Source: Alphaproteobacteria bacterium (lineage in GTDB: Bacteria; Pseudomonadota; Alphaproteobacteria; Micavibrionales; Micavibrionaceae). From it: DNA of 64,000 nucleotides. Of this stretch, positions 18,794-57,619 are shown in pieces; positions within the stretch are counted from its first letter, which is position 1; each line of letters starts with the position of its first letter. The position numbers were made by a program, and so were the translations under genes. The notes below the pieces were generated by a model. The model worked only from the letters and a program-made list of their open reading frames with translations. It did not search any database and was not told the origin of the DNA. The stretch is taken from contig JASMHE010000008.1 in NCBI GenBank assembly GCA_030750865.1, positions 372,001-436,000 of the forward strand. Reading direction: 5' to 3'.

Positions 18794-21211
18794 TCAATGG
18801 TGAATCACATCTTTTTCCTGATTTTCTGCAGTTTTCCCGACAATTTCGTCGATTTTCGCTGATTCTTCCTCAGAAATTGGCTCTGGAAGGCGAATCAAGG
18901 CGTAAGAAAGCACCTCTTCGATGGTGTTCACCGGAATAATCTCCAAAGACTTTTTGATATTATCGGGAATATCAGCGAGGTCTTTTTCATTTTCCTTCGG
19001 AATCAGCACTGTTGTGATTCCGCCACGAATGGCACCGAGGAATTTTTCCTTCACACCACCGATGGCCGTCACATATCCGCGCAGATTGACTTCGCCCGTC
19101 ATCGCCAGATCACGACGTACTTCGATACCGGTCAATGTTGACACGATCGCCGTCACCATCGCAGCACCTGCAGACGGTCCGTCTTTCGGCACGGCCCCTT
19201 CGGGTACGTGAACATGCAGATTCTTTTTGTTCAATTCCGCATAGTTAATGCCAAATTGCGGCGCACGCGATTTAATCAGCATCTCGGCAACCTTGATTGA
19301 TTCTTTCATGACATCACGGATATTCCCCGTTGTCGTCACGCGGCCTTCTTTGCCAGGCGTTGTCACAGCCTCGATCGGCAACAAATCACCGCCCGTGCTG
19401 GTATAGGCAAGGCCGTTTACAACACCAATCCGGTCTTGCTCTTCGATTTCGCCAAAACGATATTTTTTCACGCCTGCATATTTATCAAGATTACGTGGCG
19501 TCACACGCACGCGTTTTTTGCCTTCCATCAAAATTTCTTTGATGGCTTTGCGGCACAAATTCGCAAGCTCACGTTCCAGATTACGGACACCGGCTTCTTT
19601 TGTGTAATACCGGATCAAATCACGGATACCGTCATCATTGATTGAAAATTCATCTTTCTTCAGACCGGCTGCCTTCACCTGTTTTTTCAACAAGTGGCGT
19701 TTCACGATCTCGATCTTTTCGTCTTCGGTATAACCGGACAGGCGAATAATCTCCATCCGGTCCAGCAAAGGACGCGGCATTTCAGATACATTATTGGCCG
19801 TGCAGACAAACATGACATCCGACAGATCATAATCCAGTTCCAGATAGTGATCCTGAAATGTGCTGTTCTGTTCAGGGTCCAGCACTTCCAACAAGGCAGA
19901 GCTGGGATCACCGCGCCAATCGGAACCCAATTTATCAATTTCATCCAGCAAGAAGAACGGATTAACCGTTTTGGCTTTTTTCATGCCCTGAATAATCTTG
20001 CCTGGCATTGCACCGATATATGTCCGGCGGTGACCGCGAATTTCACTTTCGTCACGCACGCCACCAAGTGACATACGTACAAAATTACGGTTTGTGGCTT
20101 TTGCGATTGATTGCCCCAGTGATGTTTTACCAACACCCGGCGGACCGACAAGACACAGAATAGGCCCTTTGACCTTCGATGTCCGCTGTTGCACAGCCAA
20201 ATATTCAAGAATGCGTTCTTTGACCTTTTCCAAACCGTAATGGTCTTTATCCAGAACAGATTGCGCCTTTTTAATATCTTTTTTCACGCGGGATTTCTTG
20301 CCCCACGGCACAGACAGAATCCAGTCCAGATAGTTCCGGACAACAGTAGCTTCCGCAGACATCGGAGACATCTGTTTTAATTTCTTCAGCTCGATCTCGG
20401 CGCGTTCTTTGGCTTCCTTGCTCAGCTTCTTTTCTTCGATTTTGTTCTCGAGCTGCTTGATCTCGTCATAGCTATCATCGCCCTCGCCCAGTTCTTTCTG
20501 GATCGCTTTGATTTGCTCGTTCAGATAGTAATCACGCTGCGTTTTTTCCATCTGGCGTTTGACGCGGTTGCGCACACGCTTTTCAATTTGAAGAACACCG
20601 ATCTCGCCTTCCATATAACCATAGATTTTTTCCAGACGGTCTTTCGTATCTCCAAGCTCCAACAGCTCCTGCTTTTCCTCGATCTTCAACGTCAGATGGG
20701 CGGCAATCGTATCGGATAACTTGGCTGGCTCTTCGATCTGGTTGATCGACACAATCACTTCCGGTGTGATCTTCTTATTCAGTTTCACATACTGTTCGAA
20801 ATTTGAAGACACCGCACGGGCAAGTGCTGCCAGTTCTTCATCTTCTTCCGTTTCATCCGCAATATCAGTATATTCGGCTTCCAGAAAATCATCGCGTTCG
20901 CTGTACCCTTCGATCTTTACACGCTTCACGCCATCAACCAGAACCTTCACCGTTCCGTCCGGTAATTTCAGAATATGCGATACACGGCCAATCGTTCCGA
21001 CTGTGTACAAATCATCTTCCGCAGGATCATCTTCAGATGATGATTTCTGTGTCACCAGCAGGATTTCTTTGCGGTCCTGAATTTGCTCAAGCGCATTCAC
21101 CGATTTTTCGCGGCCGATAAAAAGCGGCACAATCATATACGGGAAAACAACCGTATCCCGCAACGGCAAGACAGGAAGTTTGTTATTCTTTGAAGATGAT
21201 AGACCTATCAT
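18794..21211 (-). CDS. lon: ATP-dependent protease Lon
   Basis: Cytoplasmic AAA+ serine protease that degrades damaged and regulatory proteins. The 805-residue protein has an N-terminal substrate-binding domain starting L-P-V-L-P-L-R-D-T-V-V-F-P and an AAA+ module with Walker A G-P-P-G-V-G-K-T and Walker B D-E-I-D-K-L. The C-terminal protease domain has the catalytic serine in K-D-G-P-S-A-G-A-A-M and the catalytic lysine downstream. The end is acidic and glutamate-rich. It lies between clpP and hupB; clpX, often found between clpP and lon, is not there. A vegetative promoter candidate lies about 60 bases upstream. Confidence 0.97.
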   Translation of the reverse strand: MIGLSSSKNNKLPVLPLRDTVVFPYMIVPLFIGREKSVNALEQIQDRKEILLVTQKSSSEDDPAEDDLYTVGTIGRVSHILKLPDGTVKVLVDGVKRVKIEGYSERDDFLEAEYTDIADETEEDEELAALARAVSSNFEQYVKLNKKITPEVIVSINQIEEPAKLSDTIAAHLTLKIEEKQELLELGDTKDRLEKIYGYMEGEIGVLQIEKRVRNRVKRQMEKTQRDYYLNEQIKAIQKELGEGDDSYDEIKQLENKIEEKKLSKEAKERAEIELKKLKQMSPMSAEATVVRNYLDWILSVPWGKKSRVKKDIKKAQSVLDKDHYGLEKVKERILEYLAVQQRTSKVKGPILCLVGPPGVGKTSLGQSIAKATNRNFVRMSLGGVRDESEIRGHRRTYIGAMPGKIIQGMKKAKTVNPFFLLDEIDKLGSDWRGDPSSALLEVLDPEQNSTFQDHYLELDYDLSDVMFVCTANNVSEMPRPLLDRMEIIRLSGYTEDEKIEIVKRHLLKKQVKAAGLKKDEFSINDDGIRDLIRYYTKEAGVRNLERELANLCRKAIKEILMEGKKRVRVTPRNLDKYAGVKKYRFGEIEEQDRIGVVNGLAYTSTGGDLLPIEAVTTPGKEGRVTTTGNIRDVMKESIKVAEMLIKSRAPQFGINYAELNKKNLHVHVPEGAVPKDGPSAGAAMVTAIVSTLTGIEVRRDLAMTGEVNLRGYVTAIGGVKEKFLGAIRGGITTVLIPKENEKDLADIPDNIKKSLEIIPVNTIEEVLSYALIRLPEPISEEESAKIDEIVGKTAENQEKDVIHH

Positions 21212-49747: not shown

Positions 49748-49828
49748 ACGCCGGCACGCCTTTTTTCTTCCCCTCTTGTCCTGCTTTATTTTATTTGCAT
49801 AATACCGTAATTTTTGCTATGGAATATT

Positions 49829-52339
49829 ATGCAAAAAGATCGGGATTATATCAGGGCATATCCCCTGTCGGCGAAACCGGACACATGGGCGCTAAACGCC
49901 CCTTATCTTGAAATTATTCAAGATAAACAAGCATTGTGGGCACAACACGGTTACCATTGGAAATTCGGTCAGGAAATCGAATTTATCCCTCACGCATTCA
50001 CCGGCCCCGGTTCGCATAGCGACCGTGTTTTACGCGATCTTGATTACTTCAGACACGACATCACCCCCGCGCTCAATCCGGTGAACAAAGAAACAATGCG
50101 GGTCATTCGAAATCTACGAAAAAATTATGACAAAAAAGAACTGAACCGCTTTCTACGCAAAAGCCTGACCGAAACCGTCGCCTATATTCGGAACATGCCC
50201 GATATCGATATATATGAAACGCAAACAGGCCGTTCACGTCAGTCGATGATCGCCGAACTGGAGTCCTACAAACCACAGCTGAACGATGCGGATGAAGAAA
50301 CACGCCGCCTGGCCCAAACCAATATTTTCTGTGCCTTCCTCTATACCCGCACCGCAGCAGAAGGCGGCATTCGTGATTTGGCACAACCGCGCTTTGGAAA
50401 TGTGTTCATGAGCAATGGCTGGTGGGACAATGAAGGGGTTTTCGAATACCGGACCGAAACACTGGATAACCCGCTCGATGTCATCAACAACGTACATCGC
50501 GCACAGGAAAACATCTTTAAGGCAGCTGAACAATTCGCCATCATGCCGTTTTTTGACAATTCAGGCTCACATTTAAATTACAGCCTTTGGAAACAAAATG
50601 ATGATGGCACGAACCGTAACATCATGGACCACCCTGATAATGATGATCTTGATATCCTGAAAGCCATAACCAGCGGCATTTTCTCTTTGTTCATTGAAGC
50701 ACCGCATTTAATTCACGACAATGACACGCTGAACCATAGCTGTGATGTCAGCATGACGACGGCGTGGTCACGCGGCAACACCATCCGCCAATGCCTGAAC
50801 CGCCACGAATTCCGGCGCGCGCAAAAATCAAGCCATGTACACATTGCCCGCGATATTGCCCTGATTATGGGTGGTGCGGCCTATGGTCTGTTCGGTATGG
50901 ACGATCCGGAAGGCAATAATCGTGACAAATCGATTGATCTGACAACATGTGAATATTACGCCACAGCTTATCCAAAGACAGCGCCAACATATCTTTCGTC
51001 CGGCCTTTGCCGCGCCATGCTGACGGACGAACGTACATTGCATATATCCGATCATTACCTGACGGAAATGCATTCCAACCTGATGGATGAAATCGGCAAA
51101 AAAGGTGCAGGTTATTTCCGGCACATCGACGAAAAAACAGGCGAGACACTCGACCTCTCATCTCCACGCGGCTGGCAAAAGATGTTTGCCAGCATCAAAG
51201 TAAGTGCGGATGGACAATTACAGACAGACCATCTGCATCCCGAATTGCAGGATTTGCTGGAGCCATACAAAAGCGGCGAAATCCTGCGTGGATTTTATAA
51301 CGCAGCCGACACAGCCATTGAGGCAGACCGCTCGCATACATTCGCACAACTCCAAACCTACCAGAACACACCGGGTTTCCGGTTTCTGCTGGGGGATCAA
51401 AATGCTTCCACTTTCTCGGCGTTTTATGAGAGCTACCTGCAATCATCTCACAAAGAAAATGTCCGCAGCCTGTCTGCCTATTTCAAACTGATTGCAACCG
51501 AGCTTGCCACGCATGATCGGCTGGAAAAAATCGCCAAAGCCGCCGATACAAACCACAGACCACAGCATATTGACTGGAACGCGCAGAAAGACGAAGCCGA
51601 AGCTTTCGCCGCTGCAGCCGTCAGGGACAGAATAACTCTACCCTATCTACACAACATAATTCTGAATTACAGACAGAAAGGCACGCGCTATCTGGAAGAG
51701 CGGTGCCATAGAATGAACGCGCAGCCACCACACACATCATTTCAATATGCCGTCAAAAACAGTAAACGCGCCCTGAAAAGTGCCTTCACAAAGAGCGCCA
51801 GACACAGCCGATCCCCCCGCGAAAAACTGGACCAGAGGATCAAAGAATTGTCGCTAGATATGTACGGGGAAATGGAACACAACGCCCTTTCCGTTGGTAA
51901 CGCACAAAACATCGCACTTGGCCATTTGATGCTGACAATCGAAGAATACGCACGGGAATATGCCGATTTCCGCAACGACCCCAGACATCAAGACCTCCGC
52001 ACATGGTTTGAAGAGGCCCTATTTTGCATGCATTTCAGCGCATTTTATAACGACATCACAGAACAGGCCGTAACCCTTGATCACTTTAATACCCGTCATC
52101 AGGATGCGAAAGACGAGCTTTTGGAAACAATCAAAATATTCAGTCAATTTTTGGTGGAAAACAGAGATGATATAACACCGGACATCGCAGCCTATATCGA
52201 ACGAATCGCAACACAAGCTGCCATCACGACAATGGATAAAATCACAGCGACGATAACGCCATATTTGTCTGGTGAAGCTACTCCTGCCCCGTATGCATCA
52301 GCACACACACAAACAGCCCCTATCCGGCAACCGTCATAA
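49829..52339 (+). CDS. Orphan protein with glutamine-synthetase-fold motifs
   Basis: An 836-residue protein of no named family known to me. Its N-terminal half resembles the glutamine synthetase / glutamate-cysteine ligase fold. It has G-Q-E-I-E-F at residues 47-52 (the E-x-E metal strand), V-F-E-Y-R-T-E-T-L near 204-212 (a second acidic metal strand) and D-N-S-G-S-H-L-N-Y-S-L-W at 243-254, which strongly recalls the G-S-G-x-H-x-x-x-S-L ammonia/ATP-site motif of GS (compare glnA in this window). A basic R-R-A-Q-K-S-S-H-V-H-I-A-R-D stretch follows at about 329-342. The C-terminal half is helical and unassigned. The ATG has GGAA five bases upstream; a TTG five codons earlier is less likely. It lies 81 bases after phaC. 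Confidence 0.72.
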   Translation: MQKDRDYIRAYPLSAKPDTWALNAPYLEIIQDKQALWAQHGYHWKFGQEIEFIPHAFTGPGSHSDRVLRDLDYFRHDITPALNPVNKETMRVIRNLRKNYDKKELNRFLRKSLTETVAYIRNMPDIDIYETQTGRSRQSMIAELESYKPQLNDADEETRRLAQTNIFCAFLYTRTAAEGGIRDLAQPRFGNVFMSNGWWDNEGVFEYRTETLDNPLDVINNVHRAQENIFKAAEQFAIMPFFDNSGSHLNYSLWKQNDDGTNRNIMDHPDNDDLDILKAITSGIFSLFIEAPHLIHDNDTLNHSCDVSMTTAWSRGNTIRQCLNRHEFRRAQKSSHVHIARDIALIMGGAAYGLFGMDDPEGNNRDKSIDLTTCEYYATAYPKTAPTYLSSGLCRAMLTDERTLHISDHYLTEMHSNLMDEIGKKGAGYFRHIDEKTGETLDLSSPRGWQKMFASIKVSADGQLQTDHLHPELQDLLEPYKSGEILRGFYNAADTAIEADRSHTFAQLQTYQNTPGFRFLLGDQNASTFSAFYESYLQSSHKENVRSLSAYFKLIATELATHDRLEKIAKAADTNHRPQHIDWNAQKDEAEAFAAAAVRDRITLPYLHNIILNYRQKGTRYLEERCHRMNAQPPHTSFQYAVKNSKRALKSAFTKSARHSRSPREKLDQRIKELSLDMYGEMEHNALSVGNAQNIALGHLMLTIEEYAREYADFRNDPRHQDLRTWFEEALFCMHFSAFYNDITEQAVTLDHFNTRHQDAKDELLETIKIFSQFLVENRDDITPDIAAYIERIATQAAITTMDKITATITPYLSGEATPAPYASAHTQTAPIRQPS

Positions 52340-52351
52340 AAAAGAAAAGGA

Positions 52352-52368
52352 CCGCTTCAGAAAAGCGG
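52352..52368 (-). terminator. Terminator after the 163-residue orphan gene
   Basis: A six-base-pair stem CCGCTT/AAGCGG with a five-base loop is followed on the minus strand by a T-rich run (CCTTTTCTTTTTT), 56 bases beyond the stop of the minus-strand orphan. It may also slow transcription from the convergent GS-like gene. Confidence 0.6.
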
Positions 52369-52424
52369 CCCCGTTCACCATAAATGTACGCATATATAAA
52401 ACGCGATCTTTTTAAGCGTCCTCT

Positions 52425-52916
52425 TTAGCGCGGCTCGGCCTGTGGCGAAGACGCAGCCTGTACCGGCGTTCTTGTCCGCTCTTCAACCAGCATTCTCAGA
52501 TCATCAATACCATATTGATCCTGAAGACCATCAATAAAATCTTCTAGTATCTTGCGGGCACGGCCTGCACCGGCAGTTTCCGGGTGTTCCGTAACAATTT
52601 CACCATTCTGATATTCTGTCATGCGAAACGTATAATCCCCCGCATCGTCAACACCGAAAACCACCTGAAGCGCCGCACTTGCATTGTCTGCCGAATCCAG
52701 CGGCGCGATATCGAAGTTCAGTGTGAACTGGTACGCAGGGCCCTCTTCCAGCCATGCCGTATCTGTCAAAGACGATTCAAAACGGCGTCCTTTCAGATCA
52801 ATCACGCATTCCAGCAAACATCTGAGTGTTTTATGTTCGGCAAAAGCCTTCACAATATCCTGACGTACTTTTTTGCCTTTCACAGCTTTAAAAATATTCT
52901 TTAATTCACCGTCCAT
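52425..52916 (-). CDS. Hypothetical protein
   Basis: A 163-residue protein without signal peptide or membrane segment. I do not recognise a family. The N-terminus is basic and helical (K-A-V-K-G-K-K-V-R-Q-D-I-V-K-A-F). The middle has strand-like segments that end in acidic patches (residues 45-110), then a helix near L-E-D-F-I-D-G-L-Q-D-Q-Y-G-I, and a disordered T/P/Q/A tail. A GAGG-type ribosome-binding site precedes the ATG, and a terminator follows. It stands alone between the convergent GS-like orphan and the gamma carbonic anhydrase. Confidence 0.65.
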   Translation of the reverse strand: MDGELKNIFKAVKGKKVRQDIVKAFAEHKTLRCLLECVIDLKGRRFESSLTDTAWLEEGPAYQFTLNFDIAPLDSADNASAALQVVFGVDDAGDYTFRMTEYQNGEIVTEHPETAGAGRARKILEDFIDGLQDQYGIDDLRMLVEERTRTPVQAASSPQAEPR

Positions 52917-52994
52917 AAGGACCTCCCTCTTTTTATAAAACAGGAGATAGCTTTACGCCGCAACAGAAATTATGTCAAGGAAAATGCGTGTGTT

Positions 52995-54781: not shown

Positions 54782-56308
54782 TCATCGTGTCTTTTTCGCT
54801 GATTTACGCCCAAGCCTGCGCACAATAAGCAGCAGAATCAACGCAATCCCCAATCCGGCAAGGGCGTTGTCGAGATAGGCCGCGATGTAGTCACGTAGCT
54901 CTTTAGATTCAAATGGCAGTCGCTCCGTCGGTAAATCGTGCGCTATCGAAACGCTCTGATCTGAGACAATCGTCAGAACATCATCAAACGTCTTATCCGG
55001 CATGGTCGCGACAATCGCATCAGATATCTTTTGTATCTCTTCATCGTGCATACGGGAGATATTGCCGTGCCAATTCAGAATTCTGACATATCTTGTCCAA
55101 AGCATTAACGCATGCGCCGGAGGCAAAGCTTTGGCTTTGCGCGTAACAATATCCAGCGTATCATCGTTTAATTGCGCCGTCCCTACGATGTCACCTAATC
55201 GGGGATTATATGAAATCTTGTTGGTAAACAAGATACGTCCGGATGCCTGCACCATGAACTGCGAGAACAGGTTCTGAAACGTATCCCGATACGCCGACCG
55301 TAATTGACTTGCCGCAACCGGCAACGGATTTGGCGTGCCACCGGCCCCCACCTGTATAAAAGGCCGGCCGGTCACAGCCTCTACGACAGCCAGACGTCTT
55401 GCGCTGATATTCGGGCCACGACTATCTATGGGGATGTCATTCGCCTTTGCCCAACGAAACAAAAGGCTCTCAAATTGCGCTTCCAGCGACACAGCAGGAG
55501 ACATCATCGTCTCGAAATCCAGCAACGCCATATCACGCGCCATCATCAGCAACATTTGATCATTCGACATCGCAATATGCAGATCAGGTAGCGTGCCGTA
55601 TCCACGCAATGTCGGCATAAACAAAGTGCGCACATCCAGCGTATAGTCTTTATTGAACACCGTATTCATGATGTCAAAGAGGGGCAAAACGTTATAAATA
55701 CGAAATGTCTGTTCTCCCGCATTTTCAAGCTCAACGACGAATTCAGACGACGCGCTCACACGCTGTTCCAGCGTAACAGGCTCCGGATAGGATTCCGCAT
55801 CCAGACTGATTGATTTGATGTGATAATCATCCAGATGAACCAACTCGCCTTTCTGGCTGTAGCCATCCGGCCGCTTATCAAACCACAGATATAACTGCGC
55901 CCAGACTCCATCTTCGGGTGTAATTTGACGGTCCTGATTGTTGTCATAAGCCGCAAGCACCTCAAACCCGCTCTTGTTCTTGCGCCCGAAAAGCTCGGAT
56001 TGATTGACGATATTGCCATCGCCATTCTTATCAATCACCAAAATGGCATCATGCGGATTAACCCAGCCGACAGCTTCGGCCATACCATCAAGATCAATAT
56101 CCCAATATACAGCCCCTTTTCCATCTGTTGGAGAGAGCGCAACACCACCGTCATTTTCAATATCCAGCACAAGCATTGATATAACGGACACATCCTCTGC
56201 GACATCCTGCCTGTCCGACGTTCCCGCACAAACAGATGCTCCCGATATCCATGTCACAAAAGACACGATCAGAAACCGTGCAAGAAATCCGCTGCTACGA
56301 TATGTCAT
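54782..56308 (-). CDS. Membrane-anchored exported protein with RTX-associated calcium-loop domain
   Basis: A 508-residue protein with a signal peptide (about 28 residues, ending near V-C-A) and a C-terminal membrane helix followed by a basic tail (I-A-L-I-L-L-L-I-V-R-R), so it spans the periplasm with a C-terminal anchor. Residues 45-160 carry four Asp-rich loops of EF-hand type: W-D-I-D-L-D-G at 69-75, D-K-N-G-D-G-N at 93-99 followed by E-L-F-G, D-N-N-Q-D-R at 122-127 and D-K-R-P-D-G-Y at 144-150 followed by G-E-L. This block is typical of large RTX or haemolysin-type calcium-binding proteins, but no glycine-rich nonapeptide repeats follow. The remaining 300 residues are unassigned. Confidence 0.75.
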   Translation of the reverse strand: MTYRSSGFLARFLIVSFVTWISGASVCAGTSDRQDVAEDVSVISMLVLDIENDGGVALSPTDGKGAVYWDIDLDGMAEAVGWVNPHDAILVIDKNGDGNIVNQSELFGRKNKSGFEVLAAYDNNQDRQITPEDGVWAQLYLWFDKRPDGYSQKGELVHLDDYHIKSISLDAESYPEPVTLEQRVSASSEFVVELENAGEQTFRIYNVLPLFDIMNTVFNKDYTLDVRTLFMPTLRGYGTLPDLHIAMSNDQMLLMMARDMALLDFETMMSPAVSLEAQFESLLFRWAKANDIPIDSRGPNISARRLAVVEAVTGRPFIQVGAGGTPNPLPVAASQLRSAYRDTFQNLFSQFMVQASGRILFTNKISYNPRLGDIVGTAQLNDDTLDIVTRKAKALPPAHALMLWTRYVRILNWHGNISRMHDEEIQKISDAIVATMPDKTFDDVLTIVSDQSVSIAHDLPTERLPFESKELRDYIAAYLDNALAGLGIALILLLIVRRLGRKSAKKTR

Positions 56309-56376
56309 GAAAAATTGGTCCCCCACCCAAAACCAAACCGGGTAAAATCTCTACAATTCTTATCAGGCCGGAAAAA

Positions 56377-56617: not shown

Positions 56618-57619
56618 ATGAGAATCAAAAGAAAATTAAAATCGCCGCTCAAGCCGATCCGACTCTTCGAGCTCTTTTCCTTTCGCTTGAACAATGACGA
56701 ACACAAACAGCTTGATCAGGATCTGCAAGACCATTTGCACAAACATACATTTCATGACCTTTCGGTTCTGGTACGCGCACTGAAGAAAAAGAATGTGCGC
56801 CCGTCCGATGAAACACTGGAAATGATCGAAAAACGCGCAATGGCAACATTCGATCGCAAAGACACCGCATCGCAATGCGACATACTCTATGCGTTTGCCG
56901 TACTTGCAAAACGCCCTTCGGACGATTTTATCCGCAAATTTGCGTCAAACTATAAGGCGAGCAGACAAGACTTCACCAACACCGATAAAGCACACACATT
57001 GCTATCACTCGCCATTTTCGATGCGCTTCCGGGAACGCCGATAGAGCGCCTGACACGACTGAACATGAAGCACGAAGTCAGCACGCATCAATATGAGAAA
57101 GAGTGCGAATACAAGATTATCAATGATGTCTGCCTTTGGTTTGATATTGACTGCAACGTTGCGCAGCCACCTGAACACGATAATCATTCGGTCTATGAAA
57201 CAATGTTGTCTGATGCGTTTAACCGCGCCGGACACAACACAGCCCATCAACAGCCCGCCAACGACATTGATGAAATGGAGCACGCCGTTGATCTGATGCT
57301 GGCTTTCCATGATGCCGCTATCATCGTTGAATTTGACGGCCCCCATCATTACAACACATTGCTGGATGGGCATCACAAAGAAGCGTTGAACGGGAAAACA
57401 CTGTTCCAAAGCGCATTGATCAAGAAAATGCGTCCGGAGCAATGTCTGCTGCGTGTCGGTTATGCCGATATCGGCAAGCACCCAACAACTGATGAGCTTG
57501 ATGACTATGTTGCAAAATTGCTTGATACGCTTGAATATAAAGCCAGCAATGACCGCGCCTACACCACAAGAAAAGCGGGCAACCGCGTAAAGCTCAGCCC
57601 GCTTTCATTAAACCTTTAA
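56618..57619 (+). CDS. OPR/RAP-like protein (predicted RNA-binding)
   Basis: A 333-residue soluble protein. Residues 40-145 look like helical repeats of the OPR/heptatricopeptide kind: D-L-S-V-L-V-R-A-L-K-K-K, then T-A-S-Q-C-D-I-L-Y-A-F-A-V-L-A-K-R-P, then K-A-H-T-L-L-S-L-A-I-F. Residues 222-290 resemble a RAP domain (restriction-endonuclease-like fold): A-V-D-L-M-L-A-F, then I-I-V-E-F-D-G-P-H-H-Y, then L-N-G-K-T-L-F-Q-S-A-L-I-K-K, then L-L-R-V-G-Y-A-D-I-G. This combination is known mainly from chloroplast and mitochondrial RNA-processing factors and a few bacteria. AGGGA lies nine bases before the ATG. The gene stands alone between tRNA-Pro and the convergent merR gene. Target RNA unknown. 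Confidence 0.68.
   Translation: MRIKRKLKSPLKPIRLFELFSFRLNNDEHKQLDQDLQDHLHKHTFHDLSVLVRALKKKNVRPSDETLEMIEKRAMATFDRKDTASQCDILYAFAVLAKRPSDDFIRKFASNYKASRQDFTNTDKAHTLLSLAIFDALPGTPIERLTRLNMKHEVSTHQYEKECEYKIINDVCLWFDIDCNVAQPPEHDNHSVYETMLSDAFNRAGHNTAHQQPANDIDEMEHAVDLMLAFHDAAIIVEFDGPHHYNTLLDGHHKEALNGKTLFQSALIKKMRPEQCLLRVGYADIGKHPTTDELDDYVAKLLDTLEYKASNDRAYTTRKAGNRVKLSPLSLNL
57572..57605. terminator. Terminator inside the 3' end of the OPR/RAP gene
   Basis: A nine-base-pair stem AAAGCGGGC/GCCCGCTTT with a 16-base loop lies within the last codons of the plus-strand gene. On the minus strand it is followed by TTTTCTTG, so it can end the ihfA-merR transcript. On the plus strand the following bases are less T-rich. 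Confidence 0.55.

What the first reader, a model, noticed from the sequence alone, without database searches (positions are those of the whole stretch)
49829..52339. Large orphan with glutamine-synthetase-like catalytic motifs next to phaC
Seen: G-Q-E-I-E-F, an acidic strand V-F-E-Y-R-T-E-T-L, and D-N-S-G-S-H-L-N-Y-S-L-W occur in the order of the GS metal and ammonia sites. The last matches the N-G-S-G-M-H-C-H-Q-S-L-F of the glnA in this window. Known: this motif set defines the GS / glutamate-cysteine ligase fold, which makes amide, gamma-glutamyl and related bonds. Inference: the 836-residue protein is a divergent ATP-dependent ligase with a roughly 450-residue helical C-terminal domain of unknown role. 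It could be a new family acting on a small molecule or a protein.
Basis: partly seen in the sequence, partly recalled or inferred. Interest (0 to 1): 0.78.

Follow-up and report, generated by a model that had tools for sequence, protein, structure and literature searches.

The report
Rare divergent glutamine-synthetase-fold ligase family
A large bacterial protein of unknown role carries the catalytic core of glutamine synthetase in strongly altered form, without the usual front domain and with a long added tail, so it is probably an enzyme that uses ATP to join an acid to an amine other than ammonia.

Summary
The ORF (49829-52339, + strand, 836 aa) and its three motifs are real. The protein alone matches nothing in Pfam, NCBIfam or PDB sequences, and against a glutamine-synthetase (GS) profile it scores no better than shuffles. 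Homologues carry the link: P0002 (26% identity over 564 columns, E 2e-43) hits Pfam Gln-synt_C above its curated cut-off (33 bits against 24). Profile-profile comparison of five members with GS gives 97.8%, E 1e-12, with the motifs in register. A weak model of the P0002 core (pLDDT 50) has only GS-family entries among the 50 listed PDB matches (Z 7.2-9.3).
Published signatures of carboxylate-amine ligases are mostly kept (GxExE, acidic strands, HxN, two arginines, ExR; one Asp missing). The GS beta-grasp domain was not found, so it is not filed as a GS. [quoted passage not shown]
The phaC neighbourhood is not conserved: none of 29 fetched phaC loci from relatives carries the gene. Five copies were found, in 4 of 142 genomes of the order. 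Substrate unknown. New variant of a known kind.

The parts
49829..52339 (+). ORF of 836 aa (P0001), GS-fold ligase-like protein
   Evidence: homologues
49886..50896 (+). GS-like catalytic core up to the last motif region, residues 20-356
49967..49984 (+). strand-1 motif GQEIEF (residues 47-52), GhExE signature, Glu49 and Glu51
   Evidence: signature from PMC2588565
49985..50383 (+). stretch of about 130 residues (53-185) between core strand 1 and the acidic strands; shorter in P0003 and P0004
   Evidence: alignment
50384..50452 (+). QPRFG-x6-GWWD...FEYR (residues 186-208): invariant Asp200 and Glu206, probable metal ligands on strands 2/3
   Evidence: assignment of Asp200 to strand 2 is inference
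50570..50590 (+). strand-4 motif HLNYSLW (residues 248-254), HxN
50771..50788 (+). Arg315 and Arg320, aligned with the two GS active-site arginines (339 and 344, numbering recalled)
50801..50815 (+). strand-6 motif RHEFR (residues 325-329), ExR
50897..52336 (+). C-terminal region, residues 357-836, no family match; residues 436-553 alone still match P0002 (E 8e-5)
49776..49803 (+). promoter-like site between phaC and the ORF (chance not excluded: 5 sites found in the region, 4.9 expected)
52425..52916 (-). small orphan ORF (163 aa) facing the ligase gene; no proof of a functional tie

Best explanation
[quoted passage not shown] Shown: homology to the GS catalytic domain through family members, and conservation of most residues that in this superfamily bind metal, phosphate and the activated carboxylate. 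Inferred: Glu49, Glu51, Asp200, Glu206, His248 and Glu327 hold the metal ions; ATP phosphorylates a carboxylate held by Arg329; Arg315 and Arg320 steady the transferred phosphate; an amine then attacks the acyl phosphate to give an amide. Since the beta-grasp domain that completes the ammonia site of true GS (recalled) was not found, the amine is probably not ammonia but a larger molecule (polyamine, amino acid, peptide or protein), held by the long stretch after strand 1 and the roughly 400-residue C-terminal addition. It is an accessory function carried by few strains.
For: P0001-P0002 BLASTP E 2e-43, P0001-L004 copy E 1e-35, P0001-P0003 E 7e-10, P0001-P0004 E 2e-4. P0002 hits Gln-synt_C at 33 bits against a cut-off of 24, E 4.5e-8; P0003 and P0004 hit it below the cut-off. 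hhalign of five members with ten GS: 97.8%, E 1e-12, motifs in register; with the three long members only: 91.3%, E 9.5e-7. Family profiles hit GS genes across class and phylum in that register. Model of the P0002 core: the 50 listed PDB entries are all of the GS family, Z 7.2-9.3 over 203-244 residues. Active-site columns kept. No Gln-synt_N match in P0001, P0002, P0003, P0004 or the L004 copy.
Against: P0001 alone is indistinguishable from shuffles against a GS profile, and the window's own GlnA scores only 1.6 bits against the family profile. A profile of P0001 and the L004 copy alone finds one GS at E 0.001 and the rest at 0.012 or worse, best shuffle 0.5. The Asp that closes the published strand-6 motif Ex[RK]x2D is absent in 5 of 5. 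P0002 has Gln for the strand-4 His and Asp for Glu51, the L004 copy Asn for Glu51, P0003 Ser for the last strand-4 residue, P0004 does not align the two arginines, and P0001 has Gln186 where the other four have Glu; so some copies may be impaired. The models are poor (pLDDT 39 and 50; Foldseek best E 0.036, none at 0.001, TM about 0.3).
Confidence: 0.62

Rival explanations
1. A GS-fold pseudoenzyme: the fold binds ATP or a small ligand and the C-terminal part does the work, for example as a sensor or scaffold.
For: Each of the four other copies departs at one or more signature positions (P0002 Gln for His and Asp for Glu51, L004 copy Asn for Glu51, P0003 Ser in strand 4, P0004 arginines not aligned). 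Strand-6 Asp missing in 5 of 5. Overall identity to P0001 only 19-26% in the core.
Against: P0001 itself keeps the strand-1, strand-4, two-arginine and ExR signatures, and Glu49, Asp200, Glu206, Glu327 and Arg329 are kept in 5 of 5 while the cores have drifted to 19-26% identity. Gln in place of the His is also allowed in Pup ligases.
Confidence: 0.2
2. A protein- or peptide-modifying amidoligase, working like Pup ligase, with the C-terminal part as the target reader and perhaps a small neighbour as substrate.
For: Large size, no ammonia-site domain found, HxN / QxH strand-4 variants as in PafA; a small ORF without Pfam match lies convergently downstream in 3 of the 4 copies where that side can be read (window 163 aa, P0002 148 aa, P0004 117 aa; not beside P0003; the fifth copy is cut by a contig end).
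Against: The window's small ORF does not match the two beside P0002 (E 0.033 and 1.4; the 117-aa one was not compared), the pair beside P0002 has a third relative elsewhere, and unrelated small ORFs also fill the phaC junction in genomes where the ligase is absent there. No Pup_ligase family was listed for any of the five proteins.
Confidence: 0.13
3. A PHA-granule or phaC-linked enzyme in an operon with phaC.
For: Same strand, 81 bases after phaC.
Against: 0 of 29 fetched phaC loci from relatives carries the gene within the stretch held. Other copies sit at unrelated places.
Confidence: 0.03
4. Chance resemblance of short motifs.
For: P0001 alone scores like shuffles.
Against: Homologues hit GS significantly and the same columns are the conserved ones.
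Confidence: 0.02

Closest known systems
Glutamine synthetase / gamma-glutamylputrescine synthetase group (Pfam Gln-synt_C, PF00120)
   Same: Catalytic-domain motifs in order: ExE, acidic strand, HxN/H, two arginines, ExR; best Pfam, profile and structure matches. The full-length GS genes hit by the family profile and checked (L010, L033, L034, L036) score about equally with type I GS, type III GS and gamma-glutamylputrescine synthetase models, below all curated cut-offs.
   Different: No beta-grasp domain (Gln-synt_N) match, long stretch after strand 1, roughly 400 extra C-terminal residues, no detectable similarity of P0001 alone to a GS profile.
PafA Pup ligase and GCS2 (carboxylate-amine ligases of the GS fold; PMC2588565, passages seen)
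   Same: Superfamily signatures GhExE, [HQ]x[NH], two arginines; amine substrate other than ammonia (proposed here, not shown).
   Different: None of their models listed for P0001 (E up to 1) or the other four (E up to 10); strand 6 is ExR here, [QH]x4D in PafA; no Pup-like gene shown.
Amidoligase_2 and other GS-like amidoligases of phages and gene clusters (Iyer et al. 2009, recalled; paper not held)
   Same: Same fold class (recalled); some phage amidoligases appear weakly in the viral fold search of the P0002 model.
   Different: No profile match listed; fold-search E 0.033 and worse with TM at most 0.33 mean little.

Membership tests
Carboxylate-amine/ammonia ligase superfamily (features from PMC2588565) | Strand-1 GhExE / Ex[EH] | tested here: met
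   P0001 G47-Q-E49-I-E51; first Glu 5 of 5, second Glu 3 of 5 (Asp in P0002, Asn in the L004 copy)
[quoted passage not shown]
   Asp200 and Glu206 in 5 of 5; which strand Asp200 lies on is inferred
Carboxylate-amine/ammonia ligase superfamily (features from PMC2588565) | Strand-4 [HDQ]x[NH] | tested here: met
   P0001 H248-L-N250; 4 of 5 in the family fit, P0003 has HxS
Carboxylate-amine/ammonia ligase superfamily (features from PMC2588565) | Two active-site arginines (strand 5 and the loop before it) | tested here: met
   Arg315, Arg320; 4 of 5, not aligned in P0004
Carboxylate-amine/ammonia ligase superfamily (features from PMC2588565) | Strand-6 Ex[RK] part of Ex[RK]x2D | tested here: met
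   Glu327-Phe-Arg329; ExR in 5 of 5
Carboxylate-amine/ammonia ligase superfamily (features from PMC2588565) | Closing Asp of Ex[RK]x2D | tested here: not met
   Gln332 in P0001; no Asp at that place in 5 of 5 (sequences). The motif is described as varying in PafA ([QH]x4D)
Carboxylate-amine/ammonia ligase superfamily (features from PMC2588565) | GS fold (six-strand saddle) | tested here: inconclusive
   P0001 model pLDDT 39; P0002 core model pLDDT 50 has only GS-family entries among the 50 listed, Z 7.2-9.3, but Foldseek best E 0.036
Glutamine synthetase proper | N-terminal beta-grasp domain (Gln-synt_N) | tested here: not met
   No match in P0001 (E up to 1) or in P0002, P0003, P0004, L004 copy (E up to 10); only 46 residues precede G47 in P0001. 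The window's GlnA has it
Glutamine synthetase proper | Gln-synt_C above the curated cut-off | tested here: not met
   P0001 no match. Its homologue P0002 is above (33 against 24), P0003 and P0004 below, L004 copy none
Glutamine synthetase proper | Dodecameric assembly and glutamine formation | not testable with these tools
   needs protein
Pup ligase (PafA) | Profile match and a Pup gene next door | tested here: not met
   No Pup_ligase family listed; the small neighbour does not end in G[EQ]
phaC operon / PHA metabolism | Conserved neighbourhood with phaC | tested here: not met
   0 of 29 fetched phaC loci of relatives carry it in the stretch held; 20 further genomes with phaC were not fetched

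The most novel reading that the evidence does not exclude
A new family of GS-fold ligases that tags a peptide or protein (or a bulky metabolite) through an amide bond, with the long stretch after strand 1 and the roughly 400-residue C-terminal addition as a substrate-reading module that replaces the beta-grasp domain, carried as accessory cargo by a few alphaproteobacteria.
Probability: 0.2. Interest if true: 0.65.

Novelty: new variant of a known kind. Interest (0 to 1): 0.42.

Why it matters
GS-fold ligases make amide bonds on small molecules and, in Pup ligase, on proteins. A branch without the ammonia-site domain and with a large new part would show another route by which this fold takes new substrates. 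If the substrate is a peptide or protein it would be a new protein-tagging enzyme. In the libraries searched only one of the five members passes a curated cut-off, that of the GS catalytic domain, so routine annotation would mostly miss the family or misname it glutamine synthetase.

Tried and rejected
Pfam, NCBIfam, PHROGs, PADLOC and PDB sequence searches with P0001 gave nothing usable (TTRAP at 13.5 bits is half its cut-off). P0002 did hit one PHROG of unknown function (phrog_21628, 480 positions, E 1.1e-6; P0003 at 0.073); what that phage family is was not followed up. Scans or searches that found no relative: P0001 and P0002 patterns, the PRFG-x6-GWWD pattern, P0003 and P0004 patterns in viral contigs, P0002 in plasmids, P0001 in phages, P0001 patterns in genome contigs. 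The C-terminal part gave only NusB at E 1.1, taken as chance. The small downstream neighbours were tested as a shared partner: window against the two beside P0002 gave E 0.033 and 1.4; those two are related to each other, E 5e-9, and have a third, stop-bearing relative elsewhere in that genome, with none in the 4 other genomes searched; no partner is claimed. Base composition gave no sign of recent import: GC 0.485 against 0.487 for the window, GC3 0.517 within the 0.442-0.606 of 19 other window genes. Further profile hits in the order were read by eye: G092 is a GyrB-like frame, G096 a PAS/chemotaxis-like frame, G020 and G009 coiled-coil frames. The fold of P0001 was too poor to search with. 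The viral fold search of the P0002 model had nothing below E 0.018.

Papers: in the listings shown (15 of 44, 12 of 1268, 2 of 2, 6 of 6, 10 of 37 and 9 of 9 papers; and, for Micavibrio, 95, in the order 47, 94, 95, 98, 104, 105) no title described this family. Only PMC2588565 was opened, and only passages of it were seen. Most subscription papers are not held, so absence from print is not established.

The GS set A5 used was picked, the window's GlnA apart, from genes that the family profile itself had hit, which flatters; the less biased links are Pfam and the structure search. The structure model was built from only three sequences.

Full report
What is there. The ORF at 49829-52339 on the + strand codes for 836 aa (P0001). 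P0001 by itself has no significant match in Pfam, NCBIfam, PHROGs, PADLOC or PDB sequences.

Relatives. A search of 142 genomes of the order with P0001 found 3 genomes with matches at E up to 0.001: its own, G056 (two copies: P0002 of 815 aa, and a copy cut by a contig end after 440 aa, here 'L004 copy') and G080 (P0003, 630 aa). A profile of these four added a fifth in G010 (P0004; 7 of 142 genomes at E up to 0.1, of which G138 reads as an ordinary GS and G020 and G009 as coiled-coil frames). So five copies in 4 of 142 genomes. A five-row profile over the same 142 genomes gave 22 genomes at E up to 0.1: these four; 15 whose hits lie in frames of 454-523 aa at the GS part of the profile (only G138 was read); two false ones, G092 and G096; and one unclear 179-aa frame in G095. 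In 385 genomes of the class, 9 matched at E up to 0.01: its own and 8 others, of which seven read as GS by their motifs; the eighth, G199, a 126-aa frame, was not identified. In 398 genomes of the phylum, 65 matched including its own; the other matches all fall between profile positions 174 and 361; four of those loci were run against NCBIfam and are GS-like (L033, L034, L036, L042). A DNA pattern for PRFG-x6-GWWD, which fits all three long copies, hit only two contigs of genome contigs, both from 'Alphaproteobacteria bacterium isolate RI_185'; their lengths, 30257 and 462316, equal those of the two G056 contigs. That pattern is strict and would miss P0003 and P0004, and the tool warns that the window's own record may be left out.

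Homology to GS. P0001 and P0002 align over 564 columns with 26% identity, E 2e-43. P0002 hits Pfam Gln-synt_C at 33 bits, above its cut-off of 24 (E 4.5e-8); P0003 (E 0.0082) and P0004 (E 0.0027) hit the same model below the cut-off; the L004 copy hits nothing. In NCBIfam P0002 has GlnA at E 0.0022 and P0004 gamma-glutamylputrescine synthetase at E 0.0066, far below cut-offs, P0003 nothing. hhalign of the five-member core with ten GS proteins gives 97.8% and E 1e-12, aligning Glu206, His248, Arg315, Arg320, Glu327 and Arg329 with the GS sites; it does not cover the ExE strand. With the three long copies alone it gives 91.3% and E 9.5e-7. Controls: a GS profile scores P0003, P0004 and P0002 far above the best of 1000 shuffles, the L004 copy just above (3.9 against 2.4 bits), and P0001 among them (2.1 bits). 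The family profile scores 9 of 10 GS above all 1000 shuffled GS, while the tenth, the window's own GlnA, falls among them (1.6 bits). Profiles of parts of the family are weaker: three long copies find 7 GS at E 6.6e-6 to 0.0014, the two short ones 4 at E 0.0004 to 0.0032, P0001 with the L004 copy one at E 0.001. Nine of the ten GS had been picked because the profile hit them, so searches are flattered. PDB sequences by profile: best is a GS at E 0.013, and 5 of the 6 listed at E up to 10 are GS. The link for P0001 is therefore transitive, but I take it as firm.

Structure. AF2 of P0001 with three sequences failed (pLDDT 39). The core of P0002 with three sequences reached pLDDT 50. Foldseek: all 50 listed PDB chains (of 163 at E up to 10) are of the GS family, but the best E is 0.036 and TM about 0.3. 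VIA-align 2: all 50 listed entries are of the GS family, Z 9.3 down to 7.2, rmsd 4.9-6.6 over 203-244 residues. By the tool's own note a Z around 8 alone is weak; that no other family appears in the list is the stronger point, and rows below the list were not seen.

Active site. From (GS numbers in brackets are recalled): Glu49 (129) 5 of 5; Glu51 (131) Glu in 3, Asp in P0002, Asn in the L004 copy; Asp200 5 of 5; Glu206 (220) 5 of 5; His248 (269) in 4, Gln in P0002; the third strand-4 residue Asn, His, His, Ser, Asn; Ser252, Trp254 and Asn264 5 of 5; Arg315 (339) and Arg320 (344) 4 of 5, not aligned in P0004; Arg325 (355) 3 of 5; Glu327 (357) and Arg329 (359) 5 of 5. The Glu of EPRFG in the other four is Gln186 in P0001. 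These agree with the superfamily signature in PMC2588565 (passages seen): GhExE, acidic strands 2 and 3, [HDQ]x[NH], two arginines, Ex[RK]. The Asp that ends the strand-6 motif there is missing in all five.

How it most likely works. Metal-bound ATP phosphorylates a carboxylate and an amine displaces the phosphate, as in the carboxylate-amine ligases of this fold. The beta-grasp domain that helps to form the ammonia site of GS (recalled) was not found, so an amine other than ammonia is more likely. The 130-residue stretch after strand 1 and the roughly 400-residue C-terminal addition would read the substrate. Of the C-terminal part, residues 436-553 alone match P0002 (E 8e-5); the comparisons with P0003 and P0004 show no significant match there, and the L004 copy is cut off at its contig end. 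The substrate is unknown.

Neighbourhood. phaC was found in 50 of 61 genomes of the family. Loci were fetched for 30, its own and 29 of the other 49; none of the 29 carries the ligase gene in the stretch held, at most 1.5 kb beyond phaC. After phaC comes the gene that reads as a gamma-carbonic-anhydrase-like hexapeptide protein (name by eye; hexapeptide repeats) in 19, rpsI in 6 and neither within the stretch in 4; six of the 29 have phaC and the first-named gene 9-63 bases apart, the others carry assorted unrelated ORFs or sequence without a clear gene. So the ligase gene and the 163-aa ORF sit in a variable slot of a conserved block. P0003 lies between a gene that reads as lptB and one that reads as rpoN (by eye), P0004 after an ftsK-like gene (by eye), P0002 between two related small ORFs, the L004 copy after an rlmE-like gene at a contig end (by eye). 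No shared neighbour was found. The 163-aa ORF was found in 1 of 61 genomes, its own.

Verdict. A real, very rare, divergent branch of the GS-fold carboxylate-amine ligases with a new architecture; not filed as a glutamine synthetase; function inferred, substrate open.

Noticed in passing
49748-52994 (slot between phaC and the gamma-carbonic-anhydrase-like gene): In the family the convergent junction after phaC is a variable slot: 9 bp in one genome, up to more than 1 kb of assorted ORFs in others, inside a conserved hom-ompA-phaC-CA-rpsI-rplM block.
   Followed up: partly
L012 and L042: GS-like frames of 267 and 343 aa in other alphaproteobacteria that keep the GS catalytic motifs; L012 shows no beta-grasp domain match, L042 was not tested for it; possibly another trimmed GS group.
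   Followed up: partly
L110:909-1445: A 179-aa frame in G095 with NQLHSSFWTQGQNI, like the strand-4 motif of the family (E 0.06); could be a fragment or chance.
   Followed up: partly
56618-57619: ORF of 333 aa with sub-threshold RAP-domain (15 bits, cut-off 24.2) and FAST-kinase-like (12.5 bits, cut-off 27.4) matches, a pair known from organelle RNA-binding proteins (recalled).
   Followed up: no
54782-56326: 514-aa protein with EF-hand-like DxDxDG-type stretches near the N-terminus and no family match above cut-off.
   Followed up: no
L006:16265-16762 and 19462-19908: Two small ORFs on either side of P0002 are related to each other (E 5e-9) and have a third, stop-bearing relative on another contig of that genome.
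   Followed up: partly
P0002 (L002:1402-3849): Matches a phage protein family of unknown function, phrog_21628 (E 1.1e-6), which may itself be GS-like.
   Followed up: no
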